Below are positions 3,073 through 60,058 of a stretch of 64,000 nucleotides of DNA, piece by piece. The notes under the pieces are model-generated. The model was not told where the DNA came from and ran no database searches. It was given only the letters and a program-made list of their open reading frames with translations. Source of the DNA: an uncultured Anaeromyxobacter sp. (GTDB lineage Bacteria > Myxococcota > Myxococcia > Myxococcales > Anaeromyxobacteraceae); assembly GCA_903855945.1 (NCBI GenBank), contig CAIOAK010000129.1:1-64000 (forward strand). Reading direction: 5' to 3'. Position numbers and translations under genes: made by a program. The first letter of the stretch is position 1. Every line of letters begins with the position of its first letter.

Positions 3073-4113
3073 CTACACCGAGAAGCGGATGTTCAGGATG
3101 TCGCCGTCCCGGACCACGTACTCCTTGCCCTCGAGCCGCAGCTTCCCCTCGGTGCGCGCCTTGGCCTCGCTGCCGAGCGCCACGAAGTCGTCGTAGTGCA
3201 CCACCTCGGCGCGGATGAAGCCCCGCTCCAGGTCGGAGTGGATGCGCCCGGCGGCGCGCGGGGCCTTGTCGCCGCGGCGGATGGTCCAGGCCCGGACCTC
3301 ATCTTCACCCACAGTGAAATATGAGATGAGGTCGAGCAGGTGGTAGGCGGCCCGGATGAAGCGGGCCCGGGCCGGCTCGGAGAGCCCCAGGGAGGCCAGG
3401 AACTCGGGCTGCTCGGCCGGGTCGAGGTCGGCGATCTCCGCCTCGACGGAGGCGCAGAGGGAGAGGGTCTCTGCGCCGAGCGGGTGGGCCGCCTCCTCCA
3501 CCGCGGGGGGCGGGGGCGCCGCAGCGTCCGCCTCGGCCGCGTTCACCGCCACGAGCAGCGGCCGGCGGGACAGGAAGGCGAAGTGGGCCATCTCCTTCTC
3601 CTCGGCGTCGCTCCAGGCCATGGTCCGCAGCGGCCGGCCGGCGTCGAGCTGGCCGTGGAGCCGCTCCAGCTCGTGGTACTCGCCGCTGCCCTTCCCGTGC
3701 TCCTTGCGCATCCGGTCGAGCCGCTTCTCCACGATGGCGAGGTCGTGGAGCACGAGCTCGGCGTCGAAGTCGGCGAGCTCGCGGGCCGGGTCGGAGGGCG
3801 ATCCGTCCACGCCCGGGAAGCCGCGCACCACGAGGCAGAAGGCGTCCACCTCGGCGAGCGCCCGGAGCGACTCCGCGTCGAGCCCGGTGCCCTTGCCGGC
3901 CGGGCCGGGCACGTCCACGAAGCGCATCTCGGTGAAGGTGGTCTTCTTCGGCTGGAACATCCCGGAGAGACGGTCGATCCGGGGGTCGGGGACCTTGATG
4001 GCCCCGAGGTTCACCTGGCCTCGCCCGCCCGAGGCGCCCTTGTGGAGGCCGGTGAGGGCGTTGAAGAGCGTGGTCTTCCCCGACTGCGCGTATCCGACGA
4101 GCCCTGCCTTCAT
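3073..4113 (-). CDS. ychF: YchF-type Obg-family ATPase
   Basis: The protein is a P-loop NTPase of 346 residues, counted from the internal ATG giving MKAGLVGY; an ATG 18 nt further upstream would add only MLPCPL. Motifs: G1 GYAQSGKTT at the N-terminus, a degenerate G3 DVPGPAGKG, and NAAE in the G4 position, which is the NxxE form that makes YchF prefer ATP over GTP. A helical insertion follows, and the C-terminal TGS domain starts near YFTVGEDEVRAWTI. YchF binds ribosomes and is linked to oxidative stress control in other bacteria. The TGS start codons contain one of the split palindromes (3304-3318). Confidence 0.88.
   Translation of the reverse strand: MKAGLVGYAQSGKTTLFNALTGLHKGASGGRGQVNLGAIKVPDPRIDRLSGMFQPKKTTFTEMRFVDVPGPAGKGTGLDAESLRALAEVDAFCLVVRGFPGVDGSPSDPARELADFDAELVLHDLAIVEKRLDRMRKEHGKGSGEYHELERLHGQLDAGRPLRTMAWSDAEEKEMAHFAFLSRRPLLVAVNAAEADAAAPPPPAVEEAAHPLGAETLSLCASVEAEIADLDPAEQPEFLASLGLSEPARARFIRAAYHLLDLISYFTVGEDEVRAWTIRRGDKAPRAAGRIHSDLERGFIRAEVVHYDDFVALGSEAKARTEGKLRLEGKEYVVRDGDILNIRFSV
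3304..3318. repeat. TTCAC-N5-GTGAA split palindrome, copy 1 (in ychF)
   Basis: Perfect 5-bp arms with a 5-bp spacer CCACA. On the coding (minus) strand it reads TTC ACT GTG GGT GAA, encoding F-T-V-G-E at the start of the TGS domain, flanked by the A/T-rich codons TAT and GAT. The central part, ACTGTGGGTGAAG, is also found in copy 6. Confidence 0.75.
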
Positions 4114-4160
4114 GAGGGGACACGGTAGCACCGCCCGGGCAGTCGGGGTAAACGGACCGG

Positions 4161-5750: not shown

Positions 5751-6284
5751 TCAGGAGGTAGCGTAGAGCATGACGTCGTGGTCGATGCCGGGGAGGCGCG
5801 TGGTCGCTTCGCGCGCCATGCCGACCCGCTCGAGCACCCGGATCGACGCTTCGTTGTCCGGATCGGTGATGGCGACGACCCGCGAGATCCCGAGCACGCG
5901 GCGTGCGTGGTCGAGCACCGCCGCCGCCGACTCCCGCGCGTACCCGTGCCCCCAGGCCTCGGGGAGGAAGGCGAATCCGACGTCGGGATCGGCGAGGCCG
6001 GCGCGCCGGACGAGGCCGCACATGCCGACCGGTTCGCCGCTCTCCCGGAGGGCGACGCACCAGAGGCCGAATCCGTTCCGGGCGTAGCTCGCCCGCGGTC
6101 CGTCGTCGAGGTATCGCACCGCGTCCGGGAGGGAGCGCACGCCCCGGTCGCCGATGAAGCGGAGCCAGGAGGGCTCGTTCACGAGCCGGAAGACGAAGGC
6201 GGCATCTGCGTGCGTGAACTCGCGGAGGAGGAGGCGCGGGGTCTCGAGCACGGTCCGCCCGGCGGTGAGTGTTTGCGTCGGCAC
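5751..6284 (-). CDS. GNAT family N-acetyltransferase (RimJ/RimL type)
   Basis: The protein has 177 residues from a GTG start (VPTQTLTAGRTVLETPRLLL). TPRLLLREF opens the typical RimJ/RimL-like acetyltransferase fold. The acetyl-CoA loop lies around EAWGHGYARESAAAVLDHA, followed by the conserved NEASIRVLERVGM segment. These enzymes acetylate amino groups of proteins or small molecules; the substrate cannot be read from sequence. The open frame continues upstream of 6284, but that part antisenses the methyltransferase and has no family similarity. The stop abuts the stop of the XdhC fusion gene. Confidence 0.8.
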   Translation of the reverse strand: MPTQTLTAGRTVLETPRLLLREFTHADAAFVFRLVNEPSWLRFIGDRGVRSLPDAVRYLDDGPRASYARNGFGLWCVALRESGEPVGMCGLVRRAGLADPDVGFAFLPEAWGHGYARESAAAVLDHARRVLGISRVVAITDPDNEASIRVLERVGMAREATTRLPGIDHDVMLYATS

Positions 6285-9187: not shown

Positions 9188-9193
9188 GGCGAT

Positions 9194-9254: not shown

Positions 9255-10694
9255 ATGTCGCGAGAGGCATCCCTGCTGGGCGCCAAGGTCCGGGCGCTGC
9301 GCCGCCAGAAGAGCATCAGCCAGGTGCAGCTGGCCGACCGGCTGGGCATCTCGCCCTCCTACCTGAACCTGATCGAGCACAACCGGCGCGCCATGCCCGC
9401 GCCCCTGCTCATCAAGATCGCCGAGATCTTCGAGCTCGACCTCAAGGCGCTCTCCACCGAGCACGACGCCCGCACGGTGGCGGATCTCATGGAGGTGTTC
9501 GGCGATCCGATCTTCGAGCACGACGATCTCACCACCGCCGAGGTGCGCGACCTGGCCGCGCACGCCCCCGTCGCCTCGCGCGGGATCCTGAAGCTCTACC
9601 ATGCGTTCCGGGAGGCCCGGGAAGCGGCCGACAACCTGGCCATCAAGATCTCCGGGCGAAGCGACCTCACCGGAGTGGACGCCTCGCGCATGCCCACCGA
9701 GGAGGTGTCCGATCTCATCCAGCGCCACTCCAACCACTTCCCGGAGATCGAGGACGGGGCCGAGCAACTGCACCGCGAGCTCCAGCTGCAGGGGGACGAC
9801 CTGCAGCAGGGGCTCGAGCAACGGCTCGAGCGCGTGCACGGGATCCAGGTGCGCATCGAGCGCAGCGCCGACATGGGGGACGCCATCCGGCGCTTCGACC
9901 GGGAGCGGCGGGTCCTCTACCTGTCGGAGGTGCTGCGCCGCGGGTCGCGCAACTTCCACCTCGCCTACCAGGTCGGACTGGAGACCCAGCAGCCGGCCCT
10001 GGACCGGCACGCCGCCGACCCGATGCTCACCTCCGACGCGGCCCGGGCGCTGACGCGGGTCCTGCTCGCCAACTACTTCGCCTCCGCCGTGCTGATGCCC
10101 TACAGCCCCTTCCTGGAGGCGGCGCGGCAGGAGCGCTACGACATCGACCTGCTCGGCCACCGGTTCCGCACCAGCTACGAGCAGGTCTGCCACCGTCTCA
10201 CCACGCTCCGGCGCCCCGGCGCCGAGGGCATCCCCATGCACTTCGTCCGCGTGGACGTGGCGGGAAACATCTCCAAGCGGTTCTCCGCCTCCGGCCTTCG
10301 CTTCGCGCGCTTCTCCGGCGCCTGCCCGCGCTGGAACGTCTTCCAGGCCTTCCTCACGCCCGGGATGATCCGTACCCAGGTCTCCCAGATGCCCGACGGC
10401 ACCACCTACTTCTGGGTCGCACGCTCCGTGTACAAGGAGGGGGGCGGGTACCACGCGCCGCGCACGCCGCTCGCCATCGCCATCGGCTGCGAGGTGGGGC
10501 ACGCGCGCAAGATGGTCTACGCCGACGGCATGGACCTCGATTCGCGCGAGGCGGTGGTGCCGGTGGGGCTCACCTGCCGGCTCTGCGAGCGCACCGACTG
10601 CGAGCAGCGTGCCTTCCCGCCCATCCAGCACCCGCTTCAAGTTCAGGAGCACGTGCGCGGCGTCAGCTTCTTCGCGCCGGTGGGGGACAAATAG
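9255..10694 (+). CDS. XRE-family regulator with IrrE-like and DUF2083 domains (ScfR/RamB type)
   Basis: The protein has 479 residues. A helix-turn-helix lies at ~8-62 (VRALRRQKSISQVQLADRLG, then SPSYLNLIEHNRR). The middle is an IrrE/ImmA-like region, where the peptidase HExxH motif is not obvious. The C-terminal DUF2083 part has AGNISKRFSASGLRFARFSG and a cysteine cluster CRLCERTDCEQRAFP. This architecture matches the short-chain fatty acyl regulators and RamB, which control acetate, propionate or glyoxylate metabolism in other bacteria. The effector here is unknown, but the divergent peptide carrier is an obvious candidate target. Confidence 0.85.
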   Translation: MSREASLLGAKVRALRRQKSISQVQLADRLGISPSYLNLIEHNRRAMPAPLLIKIAEIFELDLKALSTEHDARTVADLMEVFGDPIFEHDDLTTAEVRDLAAHAPVASRGILKLYHAFREAREAADNLAIKISGRSDLTGVDASRMPTEEVSDLIQRHSNHFPEIEDGAEQLHRELQLQGDDLQQGLEQRLERVHGIQVRIERSADMGDAIRRFDRERRVLYLSEVLRRGSRNFHLAYQVGLETQQPALDRHAADPMLTSDAARALTRVLLANYFASAVLMPYSPFLEAARQERYDIDLLGHRFRTSYEQVCHRLTTLRRPGAEGIPMHFVRVDVAGNISKRFSASGLRFARFSGACPRWNVFQAFLTPGMIRTQVSQMPDGTTYFWVARSVYKEGGGYHAPRTPLAIAIGCEVGHARKMVYADGMDLDSREAVVPVGLTCRLCERTDCEQRAFPPIQHPLQVQEHVRGVSFFAPVGDK

Positions 10695-10719: not shown

Positions 10720-12285
10720 CTACCCGTGTTCGCCCGCGTCGGCCTCCGTCACCCAGGGTGTGACGAGGAGCAGCACCGCCACGAAGCCGTACCCGATCAC
10801 GAACGGCCAGGCCGGCCGCAGGTCCATCACCGCGTCCTGCGGCGTGAGCCTCCAGGAGTGGACGAGACCCAGCGCCGACAGCGCCGCCCCGGTCGCGAAC
10901 CATCCCGCCGCCGTCCGGAAGCGCCCGTCGATGATCATCGCCGTCCCCGCCGCCAGGATCATCGCGGTGAAGATGAACCCCTGATCCAGCGCGAAGCCGC
11001 CGCGGATCCAGACGTCGGAGGCGAGGAAGGCGTCCAGGACCCCGGCCGTGAGCGGCGGACCTCCCGGCGATCCCACGCCCGCGGCGCGCAGGCCGGCCTT
11101 CGCCATGAGCACCCCCCAGGCGGCGATGCCCGGCAGGATCCCCATGACCACCGCCGGCGCGTGCTCCTTGCGGACGACCTGGAAGGCCTGCGCCGAGATG
11201 ACCACGCCGATCCAGACGACGATGGCGAGCCCGGCGTCGATGGGGACCGCCCAGGCGATCCAGGAGAGGGTCCCGGTGAGGGCCACCGCCGCCACGAAGA
11301 TCCCGTTCAGGACCGAGTAGCCGGCCCGGGCTCCGAGCGCCTTCCAGCCCGGGTGGCCGATGTAGAGGGTGGTCGGGAAGCAGGAGCCGAGCAGCGCCGC
11401 CAGCACCGTGGAGAGCCCGTTCACCATGAGGGAAGGGCGGGTGGGGTAGGCGTCCCCGGCCGCCTCGGCCGACTCGACGTTCTGCAGCGAGCCCACCAGC
11501 GTGAAGAGCCCCATGGGCAGGATCACGGAGAGGTAGGTGGCCAGGTGGCCGCCGCGCAGCGCCTCGAGGAGCGCCCCCACCGCCGAGGTCGGGGGGCAGA
11601 AGGAGGCGGCCGATTGCGGCGCCGCCCCCACCGGCGCGAGGCCGGTCGCCCAGGCCAGGAAGGTACCGAGGACCACCGCCACGAGCCCGCCGGGGATGCG
11701 CCCGCGGAAGCGGACCCGGCCGAAGTAGGTGACGAGCACCACCCCGAGCGTGGCGAACCCGACCACCGGACGCGCGAAGGCGCGCAGGAGGAAGCCGAGC
11801 GAGATGAACCCCAGCGCGATCCCGGCCAGTGTGGAGAGGAGCGCGGCCCGGGGCGTGGCGCGCCGGATCCGCTCCGCCACGAACGCCCCGCCGAGCTCGA
11901 TGAGCCCCGAGGCGAGACAGGCGACGAGCCCCGCCTGCCAGGCCACCCGGGCCGGGTCGGCGGCTCCGGCCGCCTGGGCGGCGAGCTTCGCGGGGAGCAT
12001 CACCAGGAAGACGAAGGCGAAGAGGGACACGGTGTTGATGCCGAAGGGGAGCGCGGTGACGTCGGCGCGCCCCGTCTTCCGGGCCAGCTGCATCGCCTGC
12101 CAGGCGTAGTAGAGGTTCCCGACCAGCACCGAGAGGGCCGCGCCGGGGAGGATCGTCCCCCGCACGAGCGATTCGGGGAAGCCCAGCGCGTGCCGGCAGA
12201 GCGCGTCGATGACGAGCAACTGCACCAGGTTGTCGAGGGCCAGACCGAAGAAACCATCGACGTCGCCGCGGACGAACCAGCGCAA
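10720..12285 (-). CDS. NCS2/AzgA-like nucleobase or sulfate-type permease
   Basis: The protein has about 521 residues and some 12 transmembrane helices. The TTG at 12285 is chosen as start because GGGGAGG lies five bases before it; the ATG at 12336 has no ribosome site. LFTLVGSLQNVESAEAAGD and the following LLGSCFPTTLYIGHPGWKA resemble the substrate-site helices of xanthine/uracil permeases (NCS2). It may import purines or pyrimidines, but substrate specificity cannot be read. It stands alone, convergent with the regulator gene. Confidence 0.72.
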   Translation of the reverse strand: MRWFVRGDVDGFFGLALDNLVQLLVIDALCRHALGFPESLVRGTILPGAALSVLVGNLYYAWQAMQLARKTGRADVTALPFGINTVSLFAFVFLVMLPAKLAAQAAGAADPARVAWQAGLVACLASGLIELGGAFVAERIRRATPRAALLSTLAGIALGFISLGFLLRAFARPVVGFATLGVVLVTYFGRVRFRGRIPGGLVAVVLGTFLAWATGLAPVGAAPQSAASFCPPTSAVGALLEALRGGHLATYLSVILPMGLFTLVGSLQNVESAEAAGDAYPTRPSLMVNGLSTVLAALLGSCFPTTLYIGHPGWKALGARAGYSVLNGIFVAAVALTGTLSWIAWAVPIDAGLAIVVWIGVVISAQAFQVVRKEHAPAVVMGILPGIAAWGVLMAKAGLRAAGVGSPGGPPLTAGVLDAFLASDVWIRGGFALDQGFIFTAMILAAGTAMIIDGRFRTAAGWFATGAALSALGLVHSWRLTPQDAVMDLRPAWPFVIGYGFVAVLLLVTPWVTEADAGEHG

Positions 12286-12864: not shown

Positions 12865-13404
12865 TCACGATCCGAAGAGCCAGCGCACCGCCGCCACCGA
12901 GGCCGCGAAGCCGGCCAGGTCGGCGATCAGGGCCGCCGGCAACGCCTGCCGGTACCGGGTGATCCCGACCGCCCCGAAGTAGACCGCCAGCACGTAGAAG
13001 GTGGTCTCGGTCGATCCGGCCATCACCGAGGCCAGCCGTCCGGCGTAGGAGTCGGGCCCGTCGGAGCGGAGCACGTCGGCCACCACGCCGAGCGCCGCGC
13101 CCCCGGAGAGGGGGCGCACGAGGACCAGCGGCAGCACGCTCGCCGGGATCCCGATCCGGGACGTGACCGGCGCGAGCAGCGCCGCCAGCCCGTCCATCGC
13201 CCCCGAGGCGCGGAGCATCCCGAGCGCCACCACCACCGCCACGAGCGGGGGGATGATCCGCACCGCGACCTGGAACCCCTCCTTCGCCCCCTCCACGAAG
13301 ACGGGATAGACCTTCACCTTGCGTGTAAGGGCCCAGGCGGGGATCCCGGCCACGAGCAGCGGGACGGCCCAGACGGAGAGCGCCTCGAGCGCCGCCCGGA
13401 TCAC
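12865..13404 (-). CDS. spmB: spore maturation protein B-like Gate-domain membrane protein
   Basis: The protein has 179 residues and several transmembrane helices. The nucleoside-recognition (Gate) domain has VRPLSGGAALGVVADVL and a GSTETTFYVLAVYFG helix typical of SpmB. The GTG start overlaps the stop of spmA by 4 nt (GTGA), so the pair is translationally coupled. In Bacillus SpmA/B affect spore core dehydration; homologues are common in non-sporulating Gram-negatives, where the role is unknown. Confidence 0.85.
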   Translation of the reverse strand: MIRAALEALSVWAVPLLVAGIPAWALTRKVKVYPVFVEGAKEGFQVAVRIIPPLVAVVVALGMLRASGAMDGLAALLAPVTSRIGIPASVLPLVLVRPLSGGAALGVVADVLRSDGPDSYAGRLASVMAGSTETTFYVLAVYFGAVGITRYRQALPAALIADLAGFAASVAAVRWLFGS

Positions 13405-20060: not shown

Positions 20061-21340
20061 ACCACTTCCAGCGAAGGAACGGCGAGCTCTGCGCCGAGGA
20101 GATCTCCCTGGAGCGGCTGGCCCGCGCCTACGGCACGCCGCTCTACGTCTACTCGTCGGCCACGCTCCGACGCCACTGGAAGGTGCTCGACCGGTCGCTC
20201 ACCGGCCTGCGCCACCTCGTCTGCTACGCCGCCAAGGCCAACGCGAACCTGGCCGTGCTCGACCTGCTCGCCCGGCTGGGCGCCGGCTTCGACATCGTGT
20301 CGGGCGGGGAGCTCTACCGGGTGCTCCAGGCGGGCGGCGCCCCGCGCAAGGTGGTCTACAGCGGCGTGGGCAAGACCGACGAGGAGATCGCCTTCGCCCT
20401 TTCGCAGGGCGTGAAGTGCCTGAACGTGGAGAGCGGCCCCGAGCTGGGGCGCATCTCGGTGGTGGCTCGGCGGCTCGGGGTCCGGGCGCCTATTTCACTA
20501 CGAGTGAATCCGGACGTGGATCCCCGCACCCATCCCTACATCGCCACGGGCCTGAAGACCTCCAAGTTCGGGGTTTCGGTCGAGGACGCCCGCCGCCTCT
20601 ACACGGTGGCCGCGGGCGACCCGGCCATCGACGTCCGGGGCGTGGCCTGCCACATCGGTTCGCAGATCACCACGGTGGTCCCCTTCCTGGACGCCATCGC
20701 CCGGGTCCGGGCGCTCGTTCGGGACCTCGGGCGCTCCGGCGTGCGGTTGCGCCACATCGACATCGGGGGCGGGCTGGGGATCCAGTACAGCGACGAGAAC
20801 CCGCCGCACCCGGACGAGTACGGCGCGGCGGTGAAGCGAGCCATGAAGGGCTGGAGCGGCGAGGTGATCCTGGAGCCGGGGCGGGTGCTCGTGGGCAACG
20901 CCGGCGTGCTCCTCACCCGGGTCCTCTTCCTGAAGCGGAGCGGCCGGAAGCGCTTCGCCGTGGTGGACGCGGGGATGAACGACCTCGTCCGCCCGAGCCT
21001 CTACGACGCCCACCACGACATCGAGCTCGTCGGCGGCGAGGCGCGCCCGGAGGGGACGATCGACGTGGTCGGGCCGGTCTGCGAGTCGTCCGACTTCCTG
21101 GCCCGCGGCCGGCGCATGGCCGTCCCGGAGGCGGGCGACCTGCTCTGCGTCCGGTCGGCCGGGGCCTACGGCTTCTCCATGTCCTCCTCCTACAACGCGC
21201 GCCCCCGGGCCGCGGAGGTGCTGGTGGACGGGGACGTGGCGCGGCTCGTCCGGAAGCGGGAGACCTGGCCGGACCTCGTCCGGGGGGAACGGGCGCGCCC
21301 GGCCGGACGCCGGTTTCCGGCCCCCCGCCGGATCGGCTAG
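20057..21340 (+). CDS. lysA: diaminopimelate decarboxylase
   Basis: The protein has 427 residues and is a fold-III PLP enzyme. [13 protein letters not shown] carries the PLP lysine, HIGSQ the conserved His, GGGLGIQYS the phosphate-binding glycines, EPGRVLV a substrate-site Arg, and CESSDFLA and [12 protein letters not shown] the active site from the other subunit. It makes lysine from meso-diaminopimelate. It overlaps the lipoprotein gene by 4 nt. The stretch encoding ISLRVN contains split palindrome copy 2. A GGCCGG/CCGGCC hairpin lies in its last codons (21301-21322), and T6 follows at 21355-21360. Confidence 0.95.
20494..20508. repeat. TTCAC-N5-GTGAA split palindrome, copy 2 (in lysA)
   Basis: Perfect arms with spacer TACGA. 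Codons ATT TCA CTA CGA GTG AAT encode I-S-L-R-V-N. ATT, TCA, CTA, CGA and AAT are all unusual in this G/C-ending codon usage, while the surrounding lysA codons are normal. Confidence 0.8.
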
Positions 21341-22292: not shown

Positions 22293-23108
22293 ATGGTGAA
22301 CGTCGTCGTGACCGGGGTGGCCGGCCGCATGGGTGGGACCATCCTGCGCATGCTGCGCGATACCGACGGGCTGCGCCTCGTGGGAGCGGTGGAGCGGCCG
22401 GGCTGGAGCGGCCCGGGCGACGCGGGAGAAGCGGCGGGCTTCGGCCCGATCGGCGTGCCGGTCGGGAACGACCTCGCGGCGGTGCTGGCGCGCACGCAGA
22501 CGGACGTGGTGATCGACTTCACGAGCCACGAGGCCTCGGTGCGCAACGCCACGGTGGCGGCCGACGCCGGCGTGGCCATCGTGATCGGCTCCACCGGCTT
22601 CCCGGCCGACGGCAAGGCCCGCATCCAGCAGGACGCCGCCCGCATCCCGGTGGTGCTCTCCCCCAACATGAGCGTGGGGGTGAACGTGATGTTCGCCCTG
22701 GTGGCCCAGGCCGCCCGGGCGCTGGGGGACGCCTACGACGTGGAGATCGTCGAGATGCACCACGGCAAGAAGAAGGACGCGCCCAGCGGGACGGCGGTGC
22801 GGCTCGCCGAGGTGGCCGCGGAGGCGCTCCACCGCGATCCCGCCCGCGATGTCGTCTACGCCCGCCACGGCATGGTGGGGGAGCGCACCCCGCGTGAGAT
22901 CGGCGTCATGACGCTCCGGGGCGGCGACGTGGTGGGGGAGCACACGGTCTTCTTCGCCGGGCAGGGGGAGCGGCTCGAGGTCACCCACCGGGCCACCTCC
23001 CGCGATCAGTTCGCCCGCGGGGCGCTGCGTGCTGCACGCTGGGTGAATGGGCGCGCGCCCGGGATGTACGACATGCACGACGTGCTCGGACTCCGGGGGG
23101 CGCCGTGA
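22293..23108 (+). CDS. dapB: 4-hydroxy-tetrahydrodipicolinate reductase
   Basis: The protein has 271 residues. The N-terminal Rossmann motif is [19 protein letters not shown] and GSTGF follow, and the catalytic signature [13 protein letters not shown] is complete. It reduces the DapA product with NAD(P)H on the way to diaminopimelate. A CAGGAGG ribosome site precedes the ATG. Its stop overlaps the GTG start of the next gene (GTGA), so dapA, dapB and the FAH gene form one operon. Confidence 0.96.
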
Positions 23109-25095: not shown

Positions 25096-26127
25096 TCAGA
25101 GGATCCGCGCCGCGAGCAGGTCCTGGACGTCGAGCAGCCCGACGGCCCGGCCCGTGGCGTCCACCACCGGCACCTGGTCGATGCGGGCCTCGCGCATCAC
25201 CCGGGCGGCCTCCACGAGCCGTTCCTCGGGGCGCACCGTGCGCGGGTTGCGGGTCATCACCGTCGAGACCGGCTGATCGAAGTCGATGCGCCCCTGCTCC
25301 ACCATCCGGCGCAAGTCACCGTCGGTGAAGACTCCGAGGAGGCGGCCGCGCGCGTCCACCACCGTGGCGGCGCCTGGCCGCCCCGGCGTGCGGGTCATCA
25401 CGCCCACCGCCCGGCTGAGCGGCGCAGATTCCCGAACGAGGGGGTTGGCCTCGCCGCTGCGCATGAGCTCGTGGACCTTCATGAGGTGCCGGCCCAGCTT
25501 CCCGCCGGGGTGGTAGAGCGCGTACTCGTCGCGCCCGAAGGGGCGATTCTCCAGCACCGCCATGGCGAGCGCATCGCCGATCGCGAGAAGCGCCGCCGTG
25601 CTCGTGGTGGGGGCGAGCCCCATGGGACAGGCCTCCTCCACGTCGCCGATGGCGAGCACCAGGTCCGACGCGCGGGCCAGCGGGTTCTCCTCGTCGCGGG
25701 TGATGGCCACCACCCGGGCCCCGATGCGCTTCACGGCGGGGAGCAGCCGGAGGATCTCCTCCGACTCGCCGCTGTTGGAGAGCGCGAAGATCACGTCGGC
25801 GCGGGACACGCGGCCGAGGTCGCCGTGGGCCGCCTCGGCGGGGTGGAGGTAGATGGAGTGGGTCCCGGTGGAGGCCAGCGTGGCCGAGATCTTCTGGGCC
25901 ACGAACCCCGGCTTGCCGATCCCGGTGAGCACCACCTGCCCCTTGCAGCGCAGGATCCAGCCGACCGCGGTGGCGAACCGCTCGTCGAGCCGGAGGCTTC
26001 CGATGGCGCGCGCCTCGGTCTCGAGCACCATCCGGCCGTAGGCCACCAGGGAGCGCGTCCGGGCGGAAGTTCCGCGCCGGGAGGACGAGCGCGGACTGCG
26101 TCGGGGCGCGGCTTTCCTGCTGGACAT
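25096..26127 (-). CDS. kdsD: KpsF/GutQ-type D-arabinose-5-phosphate isomerase
   Basis: The protein has 343 residues. A basic N-terminal leader of ~30 residues (KAAPRRSPRSSSRRGTSAR) precedes a SIS sugar-isomerase domain with GIGKPGFVAQKISATLASTG, AEAAHGDLG and SNSGESEEIL. Two CBS domains follow at the C-terminus (VFTDGDLRRMVEQG and VDATGRAVGLLDVQDLL). It turns ribulose-5-phosphate into arabinose-5-phosphate, the precursor of Kdo in lipopolysaccharide. The ATG giving MSSRKAAPR is used; the transaldolase gene is divergent. Confidence 0.9.
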   Translation of the reverse strand: MSSRKAAPRRSPRSSSRRGTSARTRSLVAYGRMVLETEARAIGSLRLDERFATAVGWILRCKGQVVLTGIGKPGFVAQKISATLASTGTHSIYLHPAEAAHGDLGRVSRADVIFALSNSGESEEILRLLPAVKRIGARVVAITRDEENPLARASDLVLAIGDVEEACPMGLAPTTSTAALLAIGDALAMAVLENRPFGRDEYALYHPGGKLGRHLMKVHELMRSGEANPLVRESAPLSRAVGVMTRTPGRPGAATVVDARGRLLGVFTDGDLRRMVEQGRIDFDQPVSTVMTRNPRTVRPEERLVEAARVMREARIDQVPVVDATGRAVGLLDVQDLLAARIL

Positions 26128-28252: not shown

Positions 28253-29266
28253 ATGCTGGTCGTGATGAAGCCGAACGCCACCGAGGCGCAGGTCGACGCG
28301 GTCATCGAGCGGATCCGCTCCCTCGGCCTCGTGCCCCACGCCATCCCCGGCGCCCAGCGGACCGCCATCGGCATCACCGGGAACAAGGGCTCCCTCGACC
28401 CGTCGCTCTTCGACGCCATGCCGGGCGTGCGAGAGGCCATCCGGGTCTCGCAGCCCTTCAAGCTGGTTTCACGGGAAGTGAAAGAGGAGGACACGGTCAT
28501 CGACGTGGGCGGGGTCCTCCTCGGCGGGACGCGCATCGTGGTCATGGCCGGTCCCTGCTCGGTCGAGTCGCGGGATCAGATCCTGGAGGCCGCGCGCGCG
28601 GTGAAGGCGGCCGGCGCGACGCTGCTCCGCGGCGGCGCCTACAAGCCCCGGACGAGCCCGTACGAGTTCCAGGGGCTGGCGCAGGAGGGGCTCGACCTGC
28701 TCGCGCTGGCCCGCCAGGAGACCGGCCTCCGCATCGTCACCGAGGCCATGGACGTGGAGACCCTCCCGCAGGTGGCGGCCGTCGCCGACCTGGTGCAGAT
28801 CGGCGCCCGCAACATGCAGAACTTCTCGCTCCTGAAGCAGGCCGGGAAGCTGGGGAAGCCGGTGCTCCTGAAGCGCGGCCCCTCGGCCACCATCCGCGAG
28901 TGGCTCATGGCCGCCGAGTACGTGGTGGCTCACGGCAACCCGAACGTGGCGCTGTGCGAGCGGGGCATCCGCACCTTCGAGAACGCCACCCGCAACACCC
29001 TCGACCTGAACGCGGTCCCGGTGCTGAAGTCTCTCACCCACCTGCCGGTGGTGGTCGATCCGTCCCACGGGATCGGGATCCGGGCCCATGTCCCGGCCAT
29101 GGCCCGCGCGGCGGTGGCCGCCGGCGCCGACGGGCTCATCGTCGAGGTCCACCCCTGCCCGGAGAAGGCGCTGTCGGACGGGCAGCAGTCGCTCACCCCC
29201 GGCGAGTTCGAGGGGTTGATGGCCCAGGTGAAGGTCATCGCAGGCGCCGTCGGCCGCCCCATCTAG
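28253..29266 (+). CDS. aroF: DAHP synthase, AroF/type I-beta, copy 1
   Basis: The protein has 337 residues. The first ~70 form a ferredoxin-like regulatory domain ([20 protein letters not shown]), as in the Thermotoga-type enzyme inhibited by Tyr or Phe. The barrel has [40 protein letters not shown] and [14 protein letters not shown]. It joins phosphoenolpyruvate and erythrose-4-phosphate, the first shikimate step. A second, very similar copy follows 37 nt downstream. Split palindrome copy 3 lies in the codons for VSREVK. Confidence 0.94.
28468..28482. repeat. TTCAC-N5-GTGAA split palindrome, copy 3 (in aroF copy 1)
   Basis: Perfect arms with spacer GGGAA; one further base pair extends each arm (TTTCAC/GTGAAA). 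Codons are GTT TCA CGG GAA GTG AAA. The paralogous gene encodes the same peptide at 29517-29534 as GTC TCC CGG GAG GTG AAG and lacks the palindrome, so every difference is synonymous. Confidence 0.8.
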
Positions 29267-32357: not shown

Positions 32358-32977
32358 GGGAGTCGGACCTCGCGGGCGGCGGAGACGAAGCGGGCCATGC
32401 GGTCGGCGTCTTTCACTCCGGGTGAAGATTCCACGCCGCTGGCCACGTCCACCGCCCAGGGGCGGACGGCGCGGATGGCGTCGGCCACGTTCTCCGGGGT
32501 GAGGCCGCCGGCCAGGAGGACCGGCGCCACGGTGGCCACCCCGGCGGCGAGCGACCAGTCGAACGGGCGGCCGCTGCCCCCGTGCCCCGGGGAGGGGGTG
32601 TCCACGAGGAAGGCCTGGACGTCGTAGGCGCGCAGGCGATCGAGGTCGGAGGCCCGGTCGGCCGGGACCGACTTCACCACCGGGAACGGAAGCCGGGCGC
32701 AGAGCTCGGGGGACTCGTCGCCGTGGAGCTGCAGGACCTGGATCCCGGTCACGGCCGCGATGGCCCGCAACTCCTCCTCGACCTGGTCCACGAAGACCCC
32801 CACCGGCGTGACGAAGGGGGGGAGATGTCGAACGATCTCCCGCGCCACGGCCGGCGCGACGAACCGCCTCGAACCGGGCCAGAAGTTGAAGCCGAGGGCG
32901 TCCACGCCCAGGCGGACGGCCGCGAGCGCGTCCGCGAGGCGGGTCACCCCGCAGACCTTGATCCGAACGGAGTTCAC
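32354..32977 (-). CDS. trpF: phosphoribosylanthranilate isomerase
   Basis: The protein has 207 residues from a GTG that overlaps the trpC stop (GTGA). [12 protein letters not shown] carries the catalytic Cys, LQLHGDES is the conserved loop, [19 protein letters not shown] carries the general acid Asp, and [11 protein letters not shown] and [12 protein letters not shown] bind the phosphate. It converts N-(5-phosphoribosyl)anthranilate to CdRP. The codons for SSPGVK contain split palindrome copy 4. Confidence 0.95.
32412..32426. repeat. TTCAC-N5-GTGAA split palindrome, copy 4 (in trpF)
   Basis: Perfect arms with spacer TCCGG on the plus strand. On the coding minus strand the codons are TCT TCA CCC GGA GTG AAA, in the same phase (xTCACxx...GTGAAx) as copies 2, 3 and 5, again using codons otherwise rare here. 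Confidence 0.8.
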
Positions 32978-42282: not shown

Positions 42283-43331
42283 GCGCGCCGAAGGCCATCG
42301 CGATGATCTCCGGCGGGCTCGACTCCACGCTGGCGCTCGCGCTCGTGAAGCGGCAGGGCATCGAGGTGAAGGCCGTCAACTTCTACACCGGCCTCTGCAT
42401 CACCGAGACCCAGCGGCGCAAGGGCGGCCGCCCCGACGGGACCATCCCGCGCAACGAGGCGCTCCGCGCCGCCTCCGACCTGGAGGTGGAGATCGAGTAC
42501 GTGGACGTCTCCGACCAGGGCTACCTGGAACTCATCGTGAACCCGCGTCACGGGTACGGCTCGAACGCCAACCCGTGCGTCGACTGCCGCATCTTCATGA
42601 TGCGGAAGGCCCGCGAGATCATGGAGCGGGAGGGCGCCTCCTTCGTCTTCACCGGCGAGGTGGTCGGTCAGCGCCCCAAGAGCCAGCGGCGCGACACGAT
42701 GCGGGCGGTCGAGCGGGAGAGCGGCCTCGAGGGGCGGCTGGTGCGCCCCCTCTCGGCCCTGCTCCTCGCGCCCAGCATCCCGGAGAAGGAGGGGATCCTC
42801 GACCGGTCCCGGCTGCTCGGCATCAGCGGCCGGTCCCGCCAGCCCCAGATCCGGCTGGCCCGGGAGCTGGGCATCGAGGACTGGCCCCAGCCGGCCGGCG
42901 GCTGCTGCTACCTCACCGACGAGGCCTTCTCCCGGAAGTTCTTCGACATCCTCGACGCCCGCGAGGAGGCCGGGGAGGAGCGGCGCATCCTCCGGGAGGA
43001 CCTGGTGCTCCTCTCCACCGGGCGCCACTTCCGTCTTTCACCAAGAGTGAAAATGATCGTGGGTCGCTCCGAGGGGGAGAACGGCGTCCTCGACGCCTAC
43101 GCCGGGGGACGGGCGAGGCTGCTGGCGCGGGACCTGAACGGGCCGGTGGCGCTGGTGGAGGGGACGGCCACCTGGGAGGAGCGGCAGCTCGCCGCCCGGA
43201 TCGTGGCCCGCTACGGCAAGGGCAAGGACCTTCCCGAGGTGGCGATCGACTGGATCGAGGACGGGGTCCCGGAGACCCTCCTCGTCCCGCCGGAGACGGA
43301 CGAGGCGCGCATCGAGGCGATGCGAATCTAG
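42279..43331 (+). CDS. PP-loop ATP pyrophosphatase, MnmA/ThiI-like tRNA thiolase candidate
   Basis: The protein has 350 residues. The PP-loop is AMISGGLDSTLAL. NPCVDCRIFMMRKARE and GGCCYLTDEAF provide cysteines placed like those of tRNA-thiolating enzymes, and TGEVVGQRPKSQRRDTM resembles the MnmA-type substrate loop. The length is close to MnmA, but the C-terminus differs from the MnmA beta barrel. Coupling to tusA supports tRNA 2- or 4-thiolation; the exact target base is unknown. Codons for LSPRVK hold split palindrome copy 5. Confidence 0.78.
   Translation: MSAPKAIAMISGGLDSTLALALVKRQGIEVKAVNFYTGLCITETQRRKGGRPDGTIPRNEALRAASDLEVEIEYVDVSDQGYLELIVNPRHGYGSNANPCVDCRIFMMRKAREIMEREGASFVFTGEVVGQRPKSQRRDTMRAVERESGLEGRLVRPLSALLLAPSIPEKEGILDRSRLLGISGRSRQPQIRLARELGIEDWPQPAGGCCYLTDEAFSRKFFDILDAREEAGEERRILREDLVLLSTGRHFRLSPRVKMIVGRSEGENGVLDAYAGGRARLLARDLNGPVALVEGTATWEERQLAARIVARYGKGKDLPEVAIDWIEDGVPETLLVPPETDEARIEAMRI
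43037..43051. repeat. TTCAC-N5-GTGAA split palindrome, copy 5 (in PP-loop gene)
   Basis: Perfect six-base arms TTTCAC/GTGAAA with spacer CAAGA. Codons CTT TCA CCA AGA GTG AAA encode L-S-P-R-V-K. CTT, TCA, CCA, AGA and AAA are among the rarest in this region, and five of six occur here in a row. Confidence 0.82.
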
Positions 43332-46629: not shown

Positions 46630-46695
46630 CCATCACTCTTCGGGCGCCATTTCCAGGCGAAAGGGGCGGGTTTCACCCTCCGCGAACTGTTCCTG

Positions 46696-48231: not shown

Positions 48232-48993
48232 GTGCTCCTGGCGAGGCAGCTCTACTTCGAGGCGGTGAAGGTCGGCGACGAGCTTCCCCCGCTCGTGAAG
48301 CCCCCGGTGGATCGTTCCCAGGTGGCCCGCTTCGCCGGCGCGACCGGGGACTTCGGCCCGCTCCACGTGGACGAGCCCTTCGCGCGGAACGCCGGTTTCC
48401 CGAGCGTCCTCGTGCCCGGGATGCTCGCCATGGGGTTCCTGGGCGAGCTGGTGACCGACTGGCTGCGGGGCGCCCGCGTCAAGCGCTTCAATGCACGCTT
48501 CGTGAAGATCTTCTGGCCCGGCGACGTGATCACCGTGCGCGGCCGCGTGGCCGACCGGCGCTTCGAGCCGGGCGGGAAGTACGCCGCCGACATCGAGGTG
48601 TGGGGGGAGAACCAGCGCGGCGAGCTGGTGGTCCGCGGCGCCGTGACCGCCCAGCTCTACTACAGCGCCGAGGACGAGACCCGGCAGCGCAACGGGCAGC
48701 CGCCGCTCGTGGTGACGCCGGCCGAGGAGGAGGAGCGGCTGGCCCGGCTCTCCCGCAGCAGCGCACCGGCGCGCCCGGCGGTGGGAACCCGACCCGCCGC
48801 GCCGGCCGCGAAGCCTGCGGCGACGCCGGCTCGCCCGCCGACGAAGGGGCCGACGCCGCCCCCATCGAAGGGCACGCCGCCCAGGCCGCCCGCGCCCAAG
48901 CCCGCGCCCGCGAAGCCCGCGGCGACGAAGCCGCCGCCCGCGAAGCCGGCGCCGAAGAAGCCCGTGCCCGGGAAGGCCGCCAAGCGGCACTGA
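48232..48993 (+). CDS. MaoC-like dehydratase with a Pro/Ala/Lys-rich C-terminal tail
   Basis: The protein has 253 residues from a GTG after AAGGAGAGGG. Residues 1-~150 are a MaoC hot-dog domain with ARFAGATGDFGPLHVDEPFA (D-x-x-P-x-H type site) and VPGMLAMGFLGELVTDWL. From ~residue 175 the protein becomes a low-complexity tail of about 78 residues made of Pro, Ala and Lys (PAPKPAPAKPAATKPPPAKP). This positively charged, disordered tail is not part of the MaoC family and resembles linker or nucleic-acid-contacting tails. Confidence 0.78.
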   Translation: MLLARQLYFEAVKVGDELPPLVKPPVDRSQVARFAGATGDFGPLHVDEPFARNAGFPSVLVPGMLAMGFLGELVTDWLRGARVKRFNARFVKIFWPGDVITVRGRVADRRFEPGGKYAADIEVWGENQRGELVVRGAVTAQLYYSAEDETRQRNGQPPLVVTPAEEEERLARLSRSSAPARPAVGTRPAAPAAKPAATPARPPTKGPTPPPSKGTPPRPPAPKPAPAKPAATKPPPAKPAPKKPVPGKAAKRH

Positions 48994-50171: not shown

Positions 50172-51343
50172 CCGGGCCGAAGCTGGGGACGCTGGCGGTT
50201 CACGCGGGCGAGGGGGAGACCCTGGCCGTCCCGTCCACGACCACGCCCGTCTACCAGGCGACCACCTACCGCTTCGACACGGCCGCCGACGCGGCCGCGT
50301 ACCTCGAGGCGCCGGAGGGCCGCTGGCTCTACTCCCGGCTCGAGAACCCGACGGTGATCGCCGCCGAGCGGAAGATCGCCGCGCTGGAGGGGGCCGAGGG
50401 GGCCGCCTGCTTCGCCTCCGGGATGGCGGCCATGACCGCGGCGCTCCAGGCCTCGCTCCGCGCCGGCGACGCGCTGCTCCTCTGCGACACGCTCTACGGT
50501 CAGACGACGCGCCTCGCGCGCGACGTGCTGGAGCGCTTCGGCGTCGAGATCCGCCCCGTCCCGTTCGAAGGGCTTGCGGCGGCGGTGGCGGCAGCCCCGA
50601 CGAACGCCCGCGCGCTCGTCTTCGAGACCCCCACCAACCCCACGCTCCGGGTGGCCGACATCCCCGCGGTCGCCGCCGCCTGCCGAGCGCGGTCCATCCG
50701 CAGCGTCCTCGACGCCACCTTCGCCTCCCCGATCAACCTCCGCGCGCTGCCCATGGGCGTGGACCTGGTGGTCCACAGCACCACCAAGTTCCTGAACGGC
50801 CACTCCGATCACCTGGGCGGCGCGGTGGCCGGCGCGCGCTCCCTCCTCGACGGAGTGCTGGCGATGCGTCGCACCACCGGCGGCAACATGGACGCGGCAG
50901 CCGCCTACGACCTGCTGCGCGGCATGAAGACGCTGGAGGTTCGCGTGCTGCGCCAGAACGACACCGCGCTGCGGGTGGCGCAGGCGCTCGAGGGGCACCC
51001 GCGGGTGGAGCAGGTGATGTACCCGTTCCTCGCCAGCCATGCCGACCACGCGCTCGCCCGGCGGTTGCTGCGCGGCGGCGGCGGGGTCCTCTCCTTCACG
51101 GTCCGTGGAGGCTACGAGGCGGTGGCCCGGGTGCACGACGCACTGGGCCTGGTGGCCCGCGCCAGCTCGCTCGGGGGCGTGGAGAGCCTGGCCTCCATCC
51201 CCGTCATCTCCTCCCACCGCAACGCCACGGACGCCGAGCTCCGGGCCCAGGGCATCGGCCGGGGCACGCTGCGGGTGTCGGTCGGCCTCGAGGATCCGGA
51301 GGACCTGGTCGAGGACCTCCTGCAGGCCCTGGAGCGGGCGTGA
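50168..51343 (+). CDS. Cys/Met metabolism PLP enzyme (cystathionine gamma-synthase/lyase or methionine gamma-lyase type)
   Basis: The protein has 391 residues and is a fold-type I PLP enzyme. YSRLENPTVIAAERKIAALE is the N-terminal PLP-phosphate loop from the partner subunit, CFASGMAAMTAAL the glycine loop, FETPTNPTLRV the stacking region, and HSTTKFLNGHSD carries the PLP lysine. ISSHRNATDAELRAQGIG lies near the substrate Arg. Which of the related trans-sulfuration reactions it performs cannot be decided. It overlaps both neighbours by 4 nt, tying it to the operon. Confidence 0.87.
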   Translation: MTGPKLGTLAVHAGEGETLAVPSTTTPVYQATTYRFDTAADAAAYLEAPEGRWLYSRLENPTVIAAERKIAALEGAEGAACFASGMAAMTAALQASLRAGDALLLCDTLYGQTTRLARDVLERFGVEIRPVPFEGLAAAVAAAPTNARALVFETPTNPTLRVADIPAVAAACRARSIRSVLDATFASPINLRALPMGVDLVVHSTTKFLNGHSDHLGGAVAGARSLLDGVLAMRRTTGGNMDAAAAYDLLRGMKTLEVRVLRQNDTALRVAQALEGHPRVEQVMYPFLASHADHALARRLLRGGGGVLSFTVRGGYEAVARVHDALGLVARASSLGGVESLASIPVISSHRNATDAELRAQGIGRGTLRVSVGLEDPEDLVEDLLQALERA

Positions 51344-56850: not shown

Positions 56851-56862
56851 CGCGAACCCGCG

Positions 56863-57269: not shown

Positions 57270-58655
57270 ATGAGCCAGCCATCCCAGGGGCGCTTCCCCT
57301 CGCAGATCCGGTACCTGGCCTGGAACGAGGGGTGCGAGCGCTTCTCGTTCTACGGGATGACCTCCATCCTCACCATCTACATGGTGAAGTTCCTGGGCGT
57401 CCGGGAACCCGACGCCGAGGCGAACTACCACTTCTTCGTCTTCGCCGTGTACCTGACGCCGCTCGTCGGCGCCTGGATCGCCGACCGGTACCTGGGACGC
57501 TACCGGGTCATCCTCTGGCTCTCGCTGGGCTACGTCTTCGGCCACGCCGCCATCGCCATCTGGGACACGCCGACCGGGCTCGTGCTCGGCCTCGCGCTCA
57601 TCGCCATCGGGGCGGGCGGGATCAAGCCCACCGCGGCCGCCTACGTGGGCGACCAGTTCGACGCCAGGAACCAGCACCTGCTCGAGAAGGTCTACGACCT
57701 CTACTACTGGATGATCAACCTGGGCTCCTTCACGTCCATGCTCGTCATCCCGGAGTTGCTCGCCCGCTTCGGCCCCTGGGTGGCCTTCTCGGTGCCGGGC
57801 GTCCTCATGCTCTTCGCGCTCGCCATCTTCTGGCGCGGGCGCCGGCTCTACGTGAACGTGCCGCCCACCGGCCCCAACCCGAACGGCTTCTTCCGGGTGG
57901 TGGGGCTGGCGCTCCAGAAGCTCGGGACGAGCCGGCCCGGCGAGCACTGGCTCGACACCGCGCGCGCCCAGTTCCCGGCCGAGGCGGTGGAGGGGGCCAA
58001 GGCGGTCTTCCGGATCGTCGGGGTCTTCGCCCCCATCGCCGCCTTCTGGTCCCTCTTCTTCCAGTACGGTTCGTCCTGGGTGCTGCAGGCGGAACGGATG
58101 AACCGGGAGGTTCTCGGCTACACCGTGAAGGCCTCGCAGATGGGCTCCTTGAACGCCATCTTCGTGCTCACCACCATCCCGATCTTCTCGGGGCTCGTCT
58201 ACCCGGCGCTGCAGCGGCGCGGCGTGCGCACGCTGGCGCTCCAGAAGATGCAGATCGGGATGTTCGTCACCGTGCTCTCCTTCCTCTGGGTGATGGGGGT
58301 GCAGGTGGCCCTCGACGCCGGACTCGCTCCCCATGTCCTCTGGCAGGTGCCGGCCTACCTCTTCCTCTCCATCGGCGAGGTGCTCGTCTCGGTGACGGCG
58401 CTCGAGTTCGCCTACACCCAGGCGCCGCCCGCGATGAAGAGCGTCATCATGAGCCTCTGGTACGTGACCATCGCGGCCGGGAGCCTCCTCACCGCCGCGG
58501 TGGCCAAGCTGAACCGCTTCAAGGGGATCTGGTACTTCGCCTTCTTCGCCACCCTCATGCTCGGGGGCGCGCTGGCCTTCTCCTGGGTGGCGCGCCGGTA
58601 CCGCCCCACGGTCGTCCCGCTGGCGCCCGGCCCCGCGCCGGAGGGGGCACCGTGA
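57270..58655 (+). CDS. POT/PTR family proton-dependent oligopeptide transporter
   Basis: The protein has 461 residues with ~12 helices. The signature is EGCERFSFYGM and the loop motif is GAWIADRYLGRYRVIL; GAGGIKPTAAAYVGDQF is the family mid-region. It imports small peptides with protons. A TAGACT hexamer ends ten bases before the ATG, which suggests a nearly leaderless mRNA. It overlaps the following paralogue by 4 nt. Confidence 0.9.
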   Translation: MSQPSQGRFPSQIRYLAWNEGCERFSFYGMTSILTIYMVKFLGVREPDAEANYHFFVFAVYLTPLVGAWIADRYLGRYRVILWLSLGYVFGHAAIAIWDTPTGLVLGLALIAIGAGGIKPTAAAYVGDQFDARNQHLLEKVYDLYYWMINLGSFTSMLVIPELLARFGPWVAFSVPGVLMLFALAIFWRGRRLYVNVPPTGPNPNGFFRVVGLALQKLGTSRPGEHWLDTARAQFPAEAVEGAKAVFRIVGVFAPIAAFWSLFFQYGSSWVLQAERMNREVLGYTVKASQMGSLNAIFVLTTIPIFSGLVYPALQRRGVRTLALQKMQIGMFVTVLSFLWVMGVQVALDAGLAPHVLWQVPAYLFLSIGEVLVSVTALEFAYTQAPPAMKSVIMSLWYVTIAAGSLLTAAVAKLNRFKGIWYFAFFATLMLGGALAFSWVARRYRPTVVPLAPGPAPEGAP

Positions 58656-60058
58656 GCGCCCCGGCCGCGACGGCAGGCGTGAAGGAGCGCTTCCCGCCGC
58701 AGATCTCCTACATCATGGCCAGCGAGGGGGCGGAGCGCTTCTCGTTCTACGGGATGCGCAACATCCTCGTCATCTACATGGTGCAGTACCTTCTGGTCTC
58801 GGCCGCGGACTCGAAGGCCAGCTACCACTATTTCGTGATGGCGAACTACCTCATGCCGCTCGTCGGCGGGTGGCTCGCCGACCGGTTCCTGGGGCGCTAC
58901 AAGGTCATCCTCTTCCTGTCGTTCGGATACGTGGTCGGGAACCTGGTGATCGCCGCCGTGCCCACCAGGATGGGGCTTCTCGCCGGTTGCGCCCTCATCG
59001 CCATCGGGGCGGGCGGCATCAAGCCCTGCGTCTCGGCCTTCGTGGGGGACCAGTTCCGCCCGGACCAGAAGGGGCTCCTGCAGAAGGTCTACGGCCTCTT
59101 CTACTGGATGGTGAACCTGGGCAGCGCCACCGCCTCGCTCCTCATCCCGTTCATGCTCAAGCGGTACGGCCCCGCGGTGGCGTTCGGCATCCCGGCCGTG
59201 CTCATGGTGCTGGCGCTCGTCCTCTTCGTGGCCGGCCGCCGCAAGTACGTGTACGTGCCCCCCACCGGACCGAACGCGCACTCCTTCGTGAAGGTGGTGG
59301 CCTCCGCGATCCGCCGGCGCCGGGAGCGAACGGGCGGCGACGACTGGCTCGCGCCGGCCATCGCCGATCACCCGGCGGAGGCCGTGGACGGCGCCCGTGC
59401 CGTGGTGCGGGTCTCGGCCGTCTTCGCGATGGTGGCCGGCTTCTGGGCGCTCTTCGACCAGAAGGGCGCCTCCTTCATCCTCCAGGCCAAGCAGATGAAC
59501 CTGGACGTGGCGAGCTTCGACTTCCTGGGCATGAAGCTGGGCGGCTTCCGGCTCGCCGAATCCCAGATGAACGCCGTGAACCCGTTCCTGGTGCTCCTGA
59601 TCGTCCCGCTCTTCCAGGGGGTGGTCTACCCGGGCCTCGTGCGGATGGGGATGAAGGTCACGGCCCTGGGGCGGATGAGCGTGGGGATGTTCCTCACCAT
59701 GTTCTCGTTCGTCGTCATGGCCGGCATCCAGGCCGTCATCGACGGCGGGGCGCGGCCGCACGTCTTCTGGCAGGTCGTCCCCATCCTGATATTAACTGTG
59801 GGTGAAGTGATGATCTCGGTGACCGGGCTCGAGTTCGCCTTCACCCAGGCGCCCAGGACGATGAAGAGCACGGTGATGAGCTTCTGGCTGCTCACCTCGG
59901 CCATCGGGAACTTCGTGGCCGCGGTGGTCTCCCAGTGGAACCGGTTCCACGGCGCGGCCTACTTCCTCTTCTTCGCGGGGCTCATGCTCCTGTGCGCGGT
60001 GGGATTCGTGCTGCTCGCGAGACGGTACCGGCCGGTGGCGTCGGTCGTGGGGGGGTAG
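58652..60058 (+). CDS. POT/PTR family transporter, tandem copy
   Basis: The protein has 468 residues from a GTG overlapping the previous stop (GTGA). Signature EGAERFSFYGM, loop GGWLADRFLGRYKVILF and GAGGIKPCVSAFVGDQF are intact. It is more similar to its upstream neighbour than to the carrier at 7730, so the pair is probably a local duplication. Near the C-terminus the codons ATA TTA ACT GTG GGT GAA are strikingly A/T-rich and contain split palindrome copy 6. Confidence 0.9.
   Translation: MSAPAATAGVKERFPPQISYIMASEGAERFSFYGMRNILVIYMVQYLLVSAADSKASYHYFVMANYLMPLVGGWLADRFLGRYKVILFLSFGYVVGNLVIAAVPTRMGLLAGCALIAIGAGGIKPCVSAFVGDQFRPDQKGLLQKVYGLFYWMVNLGSATASLLIPFMLKRYGPAVAFGIPAVLMVLALVLFVAGRRKYVYVPPTGPNAHSFVKVVASAIRRRRERTGGDDWLAPAIADHPAEAVDGARAVVRVSAVFAMVAGFWALFDQKGASFILQAKQMNLDVASFDFLGMKLGGFRLAESQMNAVNPFLVLLIVPLFQGVVYPGLVRMGMKVTALGRMSVGMFLTMFSFVVMAGIQAVIDGGARPHVFWQVVPILILTVGEVMISVTGLEFAFTQAPRTMKSTVMSFWLLTSAIGNFVAAVVSQWNRFHGAAYFLFFAGLMLLCAVGFVLLARRYRPVASVVGG
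59792..59806. repeat. TTAAC-N5-GTGAA, imperfect split palindrome, copy 6 (in POT gene)
   Basis: One base differs from the motif (TTAAC for TTCAC); spacer TGTGG, the same as copy 1 read on the minus strand. Codons ATA TTA ACT GTG GGT GAA encode I-L-T-V-G-E. The upstream paralogue encodes the same place with ordinary G/C-ending codons. Confidence 0.55.

What the first reader, a model, noticed from the sequence alone, without database searches (positions are those of the whole stretch)
3304..59806. Dispersed intragenic split palindrome TTCAC-N5-GTGAA
Five perfect copies (3304, 20494, 28468, 32412, 43037) and one 9/10 copy (59792) lie in ychF, lysA, aroF, trpF, a PP-loop ATPase gene and a POT gene. 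All six are inside genes. At about 70% G+C a hand estimate gives roughly 0.01 perfect copies per 64 kb (0.15^6 x 0.35^4 x 64000). Most are encoded by codons otherwise rare here (TCA, GAA, AAA, CTA, AGA, ATA, TTA). Four share one codon phase (xTCACxx...GTGAAx) and two share another, on both strands. The arm centres are 10 bp apart, one helical turn, as expected for a dimeric DNA-binding protein. The arms TTTCAC/GTGAAA equal the half-sites of the Bacillus-type parS with 5 bp inserted. Possible roles: chromosome organisation or segregation mark, global regulator site, or modification target.
Basis: partly seen in the sequence, partly recalled or inferred. Interest (0 to 1): 0.88.

Follow-up and report, generated by a model that had tools for sequence, protein, structure and literature searches.

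The report
Genome-wide split palindrome in Anaeromyxobacteraceae
This bacterium and its relatives carry hundreds of copies of one short mirror-image DNA word, mostly written inside genes, far more than chance or protein coding allows, which points to an unidentified protein that binds the chromosome all over.

Summary
TTCAC-N5-GTGAA occurs 5 times perfectly in the window and 158 times in the 4.07-Mb genome (about 0.5 expected from composition; 0 for the reversed control). Within called genes of 456 kb there are 20 perfect and 44 one-mismatch copies, against 0.15 and 3.6 in synonymous-codon shuffles. With one- and two-mismatch copies the excess is about one site per 4 kb, roughly 1,000 per genome (extrapolated). 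Only the 5-bp spacer is enriched, and an unbiased palindrome scan returns it as the top motif in the host, two congeners and an Anaeromyxobacter chromosome. The signal covers the whole family Anaeromyxobacteraceae in varying strength, plus Vulgatibacteraceae-like and a few other genomes; Myxococcaceae lack it. Sites are written over normal protein sequence by point substitutions, sit in genes about as often as chance sites do, are not confined to one chromosome region, and turn over between species. In the Anaeromyxobacter chromosome the weaker sites prefer intergenic DNA. Best reading: sites of a dimeric DNA-binding protein with a lambda-operator-like layout, acting as a global regulator that has become nucleoid-wide in the window's genus. 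The protein was not found; parS, TrmB and HNH explanations failed.

The parts
3304..3318 (.). perfect site TTCACCCACAGTGAA in ychF (- strand gene 3073-4113, peptide FTVGE)
20494..20508 (.). perfect site TTCACTACGAGTGAA in lysA (+, peptide SLRVN)
   Evidence: absent at this position in congeners
28468..28482 (.). perfect site TTCACGGGAAGTGAA in the DAHP synthase gene (+, 28253-29266)
32412..32426 (.). perfect site TTCACTCCGGGTGAA in trpF (- strand); ortholog perfect in G045 and one mismatch in G046
43037..43051 (.). perfect site TTCACCAAGAGTGAA in a PP-loop ThiI/NFACT-R_2 gene (+); one-mismatch orthologs in G045 and G046
59792..59806 (.). one-mismatch site TTAACTGTGGGTGAA in a POT-family transporter gene (+, 58652-60058)
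11420..11434 (.). one-mismatch site in a gene
13313..13327 (.). one-mismatch site in a gene
20401..20415 (.). one-mismatch site in lysA, 93 bp from the perfect one; one-mismatch orthologs in both congeners with different letters
23033..23047 (.). one-mismatch site in a gene
25315..25329 (.). one-mismatch site in a gene, shared also by G031 and G047
46672..46686 (.). one-mismatch intergenic site 94 bp upstream of the gene at 46781; the same site lies upstream of its G045 ortholog
48492..48506 (.). one-mismatch site in a gene
51095..51109 (.). one-mismatch site in a gene, kept in G045 and G046
60325..60339 (.). one-mismatch intergenic site upstream of a degraded DUF222/HNH-like gene (60593-61366)

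Best explanation
The motif (consensus about wTTCACTnnnAGTGAAw; near-fixed core CAC-N5-GTG) is the binding site of one dimeric DNA-binding protein, probably helix-turn-helix with half-sites one helical turn apart as in lambda-type operators. The protein is shared by Anaeromyxobacteraceae and some neighbours. In Anaeromyxobacter it looks like a global regulator with sites enriched between genes. In the window's genus it has about 1,000 sites along the chromosome, with no preference for intergenic DNA beyond that of chance sites, which fits a nucleoid-wide role (chromosome folding, or damping of spurious transcription) more than promoter-by-promoter control. Shown: the enrichment, spacer specificity, codon independence, phylogenetic range and dispersal. 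Inferred: the protein, its fold and the nucleoid role.
For: 158 perfect copies in the genome, reversed control 0. Coding-sequence excess over synonymous shuffles 20 vs 0.15 and 44 vs 3.6. Only spacer 5 is enriched against codon-phase-matched spacers 2/8/11. TTCAC-N5 is the top hit of an unbiased scan of spaced palindromes in G045, G046, G031 and G000. Mismatches are graded by position: outer T tolerant, innermost C never mismatched in one-mismatch sites; A is practically forbidden next to the core in G000, G045/46 and G031, and the centre is A or T in 34 of 42 symmetrised positions in G031. That is how a binding motif behaves. <=1-mismatch counts vs N8 control: G000 482/25, G046 370/24, G045 547/37, G031 152/17, G047 136/9, G161 145/23. 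Sites are overlaid on normal protein sequence by substitutions. G031 two-mismatch sites are 50% intergenic vs 23% for controls, p = 6e-5; G000 shows no such preference. Tandem cores 16 bp apart occur in G031 and G046.
Against: No binder identified. The HTH_3 proteins of four genomes gave no consistent upstream site. Site-by-site retention within the genus is not significantly above a permuted-arm control. No ChIP, methylome or expression data. The ~1,000 figure is extrapolated from 456 kb.
Confidence: 0.55

Rival explanations
1. Drive without a binding role: the motif accumulates through biased DNA uptake or recombination (uptake- or Chi-like sequence), so that copies spread by gene conversion between cells.
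For: About 1 site per 4 kb, mostly in genes, somewhat evenly spaced on contig C15 (CV 0.72, p = 0.02), turnover between species.
Against: Known uptake and Chi sequences are non-palindromic (own knowledge); this one is a perfect split palindrome with a tolerant outer part. Spacing is not significantly even on the other contigs tested, nor in G031 (CV 1.0). In G031 sites prefer intergenic DNA.
Confidence: 0.15
2. HIP1-like modification system: a methyltransferase recognises the split palindrome and methyl-directed repair or selection makes the motif accumulate.
For: HIP1 of cyanobacteria is a precedent for a dispersed, mostly unexplained palindrome tied to methyltransferases (PMC4390886). G155, G024 and G029 have mostly perfect copies (145, 52 and 45), as a strict enzyme would give.
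Against: In the window's genome imperfect copies outnumber perfect ones and mismatches are position-graded; A/T preference extends into the flanks.
Confidence: 0.13
3. Classical transcription factor only: intergenic copies are functional and intragenic ones are by-products.
For: Intergenic preference in G031, with sites upstream of rubrerythrin, cytochrome, ferredoxin and sigma-factor genes.
Against: In the window's genus the excess is overwhelmingly inside genes, and copies there were gained by substitutions.
Confidence: 0.12
4. RNA hairpin element: five-base stem with five-base loop acting in mRNA.
For: The arms can pair; sense-strand G-U type mismatches outnumber antisense ones 12 to 2.
Against: Eight of the 12 are A13 to G, largely explained by avoiding the in-frame TGA in the third phase (inference); at the outer pair the wobble variant is not seen in coding sites; most one-mismatch sites break the stem; intergenic copies occur.
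Confidence: 0.03
5. Composition, codon-usage or repeat artefact.
For: TTCAC as a word is common in coding DNA.
Against: Phase-matched spacers and synonymous shuffles do not reproduce it; flanking DNA is unrelated between copies.
Confidence: 0.01

Closest known systems
HIP1 highly iterated palindrome (cyanobacteria)
   Same: short palindrome dispersed over the genome at high density, strength varying between lineages, function unsettled (PMC4390886)
   Different: HIP1 is a contiguous, strict 8-mer tied to methyltransferases; here split arms, graded mismatches, A/T flanks
lambda-type / Xre operators (lambda cI; BldD and ClgR boxes, from memory)
   Same: CAC-N5-GTG type layout, half-sites one helical turn apart
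   Different: those are promoter operators; here about 1,000 mostly intragenic sites and no identified protein
TrmBL1 motif TATCAC-N5-GTGATA of Thermococcales
   Same: nearly the same core and spacing (papers found: PMC4158304, PMC4706686; the full motif letters are from memory)
   Different: archaeal regulator sites; no TrmB protein over the family cut-off in the window's genome
Chromosome-organising sites: parS, matS, SlmA and Noc sites (from memory)
   Same: palindromes read by a dimeric protein, tolerated inside genes
   Different: different letters or spacer; those sites are tens per genome and often regional, these are spread along the chromosome and far more numerous

Membership tests
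Bacillus-type parS / ParB | adjacent arms TTTCAC-GTGAAA without spacer | tested here: not met
   spacer 0: 0 perfect copies in 456 kb; spacer 5: 24
Bacillus-type parS / ParB | few sites, clustered near the origin | tested here: not met
   158 perfect copies on many contigs; in G031 spread over at least 3.4 Mb
matS / MatP | sites confined to the terminus domain | tested here: not met
   dispersed in G031; the host's own map is unknown because its genome is in 213 contigs
HIP1-like iterated palindromes | genome-wide overrepresentation, mostly in genes | tested here: met
HIP1-like iterated palindromes | strict sequence with an associated methyltransferase | tested here: inconclusive
   strictness not met in G000; methyltransferase not tested
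DNA uptake sequence | non-palindromic, strict core | tested here: not met
   perfect inverted repeat with degenerate copies
DNA uptake sequence | motif-dependent DNA uptake | not testable with these tools
   needs a transformation assay
Xre (HTH_3) operator | inverted half-sites with CAC-N5-GTG type spacing | tested here: met
   (geometry only)
Xre (HTH_3) operator | an Xre protein shown or strongly predicted to bind it | tested here: inconclusive
   51 HTH_3 matches in 4 genomes, 30 loci examined; isolated upstream sites only (L214 in G161, Y in G031/G037), not consistent
TrmB regulator | a TrmB-family protein in the genome | tested here: not met
   none over the cut-off in G000, G045 or G046

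The most novel reading that the evidence does not exclude
A sequence-specific nucleoid protein of Anaeromyxobacteraceae with its own binding grid written into genes: about 1,000 split-palindrome sites per chromosome, maintained by selection over protein-coding constraint, with the protein's role shifting from promoter regulation in Anaeromyxobacter to chromosome-wide architecture in the window's genus.
Probability: 0.3. Interest if true: 0.82.

Novelty: new member of a known kind. Interest (0 to 1): 0.62.

Why it matters
Few bacterial motifs are this abundant, this independent of promoters and this clearly gained over coding constraint without a known reader. A complete Anaeromyxobacter chromosome (G031, by length a cultured strain) carries the same motif, so the reader protein can be fished out directly. 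If it is a nucleoid protein, the family offers a natural series of genomes (weak to strong) showing how a regulator's sites multiply into chromosome-wide ones.

Tried and rejected
Chance and codon usage: rejected by dinucleotide shuffles, phase-matched spacers and synonymous shuffles. The reversed pattern is a poor control (TTCAC is about four times commoner than CACTT), so the N8 spacer was used instead. My first impression of a sporadic, horizontally acquired system was dropped when one-mismatch counts showed the whole family enriched. parS: spacer 0 not enriched. RNA hairpin: the wobble asymmetry is mostly explained by stop avoidance. HTH_3 proteins X, Y, Z: no consistent operator upstream; Y has its own palindrome TTGCGGAWTCCGCAA. 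TrmB: absent above cut-off in the window's genus. DUF222/HNH genes often carry a site upstream, but G047 (136 vs 9) and G161 (145 vs 23) have the motif without a detectable HNH homolog, so HNH is not the required binder. Tandem-site search: three genomes, no shared gene. Literature: no paper with TTCACNNNNNGTGAA; no relevant Anaeromyxobacter hit.

Full report
WHAT WAS CHECKED. Phases are four and two, as stated. The third phase would place TGA in frame, so phase sharing carries no extra weight. Composition alone gives about 0.007 perfect copies per 64 kb, hence about 0.5 per genome.

GENOME-WIDE. The host genome (G000, 4.07 Mb, 213 contigs) holds 158 perfect copies; the reversed pattern 0. In 456 kb of it, spacer 5 gives 24 / 49 / 87 copies with 0 / 1 / 2 mismatches; spacers 2, 8 and 11, which have the same codon-phase relation, average 0 / 2.3 / 39. 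The excess is about 119 sites, one per 3.8 kb, or roughly 1,000 per genome by extrapolation. Shuffling synonymous codons within genes, which keeps the proteins and codon usage, leaves 0.15 perfect and 3.6 one-mismatch copies, against 20 and 44 observed. A scan of spaced 5-mer palindromes (arms of five G/C bases left out) with gaps 0-24 puts TTCAC-N5 first in G000, G045, G046 and G031.

SHAPE OF THE SITE. The symmetrised consensus in G000 is wTTCACTnnnAGTGAAw with A/T-rich flanks of about 3 bp. In one-mismatch copies the innermost C is never changed and the outer T's vary most. The base next to the core is practically never A in G000, G045/46 or G031; G031 prefers A/T at the centre (34 of 42), and G000 prefers T and A at the spacer ends. 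Such graded, lineage-shaded specificity is typical of a binding protein and unlike a strict enzyme. The CAC-N5-GTG layout is that of lambda-type operators (own knowledge) and of the archaeal TrmBL1 motif (TCAC-N5-GTGA core, papers found), so geometry alone does not name a fold.

WHERE THE SITES LIE. In G000, 65 of 73 (0 or 1 mismatch) lie in called genes, close to the coding fraction of about 94%; their intergenic share does not differ from that of control sites. They overlay ordinary protein sequence: FTVGE of YchF, SLRVN of LysA, SPGVK of TrpF. Orthologs in other genera lack the motif letters, and several substitutions are clustered in the 15 bp, for example GGCGCTGCGCGTGAA in G046 against TTCACTACGAGTGAA in lysA. 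Orthologous positions in the two congeners are still within one mismatch in 42 of 73 comparisons, and in 6 of 63 for other genera; permuted-arm control sites are kept in 10 of 24 and 7 of 19. The within-genus difference is not significant (p = 0.24), but the contrast with other genera indicates that most of these sites were gained within the genus. In the complete Anaeromyxobacter chromosome G031 sites are spread over the 3.4 Mb listed, with only mild unevenness (KS p = 0.04), so they are not confined to one region. There, two-mismatch sites are intergenic in 37 of 74 cases against 34 of 151 control sites (p = 6e-5). Genes downstream of strong intergenic sites include rubrerythrin, multihaem cytochromes, NapC/NirT, a ferredoxin, a sulfite-oxidase-like protein and an ECF sigma factor; no enrichment test was made, and the G031 stretches were partly chosen because they contain sites.

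WHO HAS IT. Nearest named relatives are uncultured Anaeromyxobacter MAGs. Over 189 Myxococcota genomes, <=1-mismatch counts for N5 against N8 are: G000 482/25, G045 547/37, G046 370/24, G031 152/17, G037 122/10, G032 133/10, G047 136/9, G053 116/16, G042 29/5 in the family; G161 145/23 and G162 32/8 in family f9; G155 249/63; G024 114/36; G029 93/38; and close to 1:1 in the genomes of f6, the largest family sampled. One family member, G034, shows no excess (50/53). G031 (5,029,329 bp) and G161 (4,350,553 bp) match by length, from memory, A. dehalogenans 2CP-1 and Vulgatibacter incomptus; f6 is by size and company Myxococcaceae. G155, G024 and G029 are rich in perfect copies with few near-copies (145, 52, 45), so the motif there may have another reader.

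LOOKING FOR THE PROTEIN. HTH_3 proteins of G000, G031, G042 and G161 were listed and 30 loci read; small single-domain Xre proteins X, Y and Z are strongly conserved in the family, but none has the motif upstream consistently. Y has its own palindrome TTGCGGAWTCCGCAA, also 5-5-5, in G031 and G042. A Vulgatibacter-like Xre gene (L214) has TTAACCGTGCGTGAA at -63, the single best autoregulation hint. TrmB is absent above cut-off in the window's genus. DUF222/HNH genes, multicopy in the family, carry sites 225-290 bp upstream in 6 of 8 copies seen, but G047 and G161 have the motif without detectable HNH homologs. The reader protein remains unknown.

VERDICT. A real, previously undescribed (as far as the searched library shows), family-wide dispersed split palindrome. 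Most likely it is the site of a global dimeric DNA-binding protein whose role in the window's genus is chromosome-wide. Uptake-like drive and modification remain open. Enrichment, spacer specificity, codon independence, range and dispersal are shown; protein, fold and function are inferred.

Noticed in passing
G155 (L175, L176, L180-L183): A second dispersed split palindrome, TTAAC-N6-GTTAA: 4 perfect and 7 one-mismatch copies in 200 kb against 0.3 expected at <=1 mismatch; different letters, similar style.
   Followed up: partly
window 60593-61366; L185:7721, L274:9823, L192:1256, G046:C25:63688: Multicopy DUF222/HNH endonuclease-like genes with conserved promoters (TTGAC box) and a TTCAC-type site 225-290 bp upstream in 6 of 8 copies; the window copy looks degraded. 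Spread through Anaeromyxobacteraceae and a few other genomes, absent from most Myxococcaceae.
   Followed up: partly
L208 / L213 / L250 upstream regions: Small Xre protein Y has a conserved palindrome TTGCGGAWTCCGCAA in its promoter in two genera and a variant in a third, probably its own operator.
   Followed up: partly
G031:C1:1470376-1470404 and G046:C56:17077-17105: Tandem TCAC-N5-GTGA cores exactly 16 bp apart, upstream of unrelated genes.
   Followed up: partly
window 9255-10694: ScfR-type regulator (HTH_19/HTH_3 + IrrE-like peptidase + ScfRs domain), 71% identical to a G031 protein.
   Followed up: no
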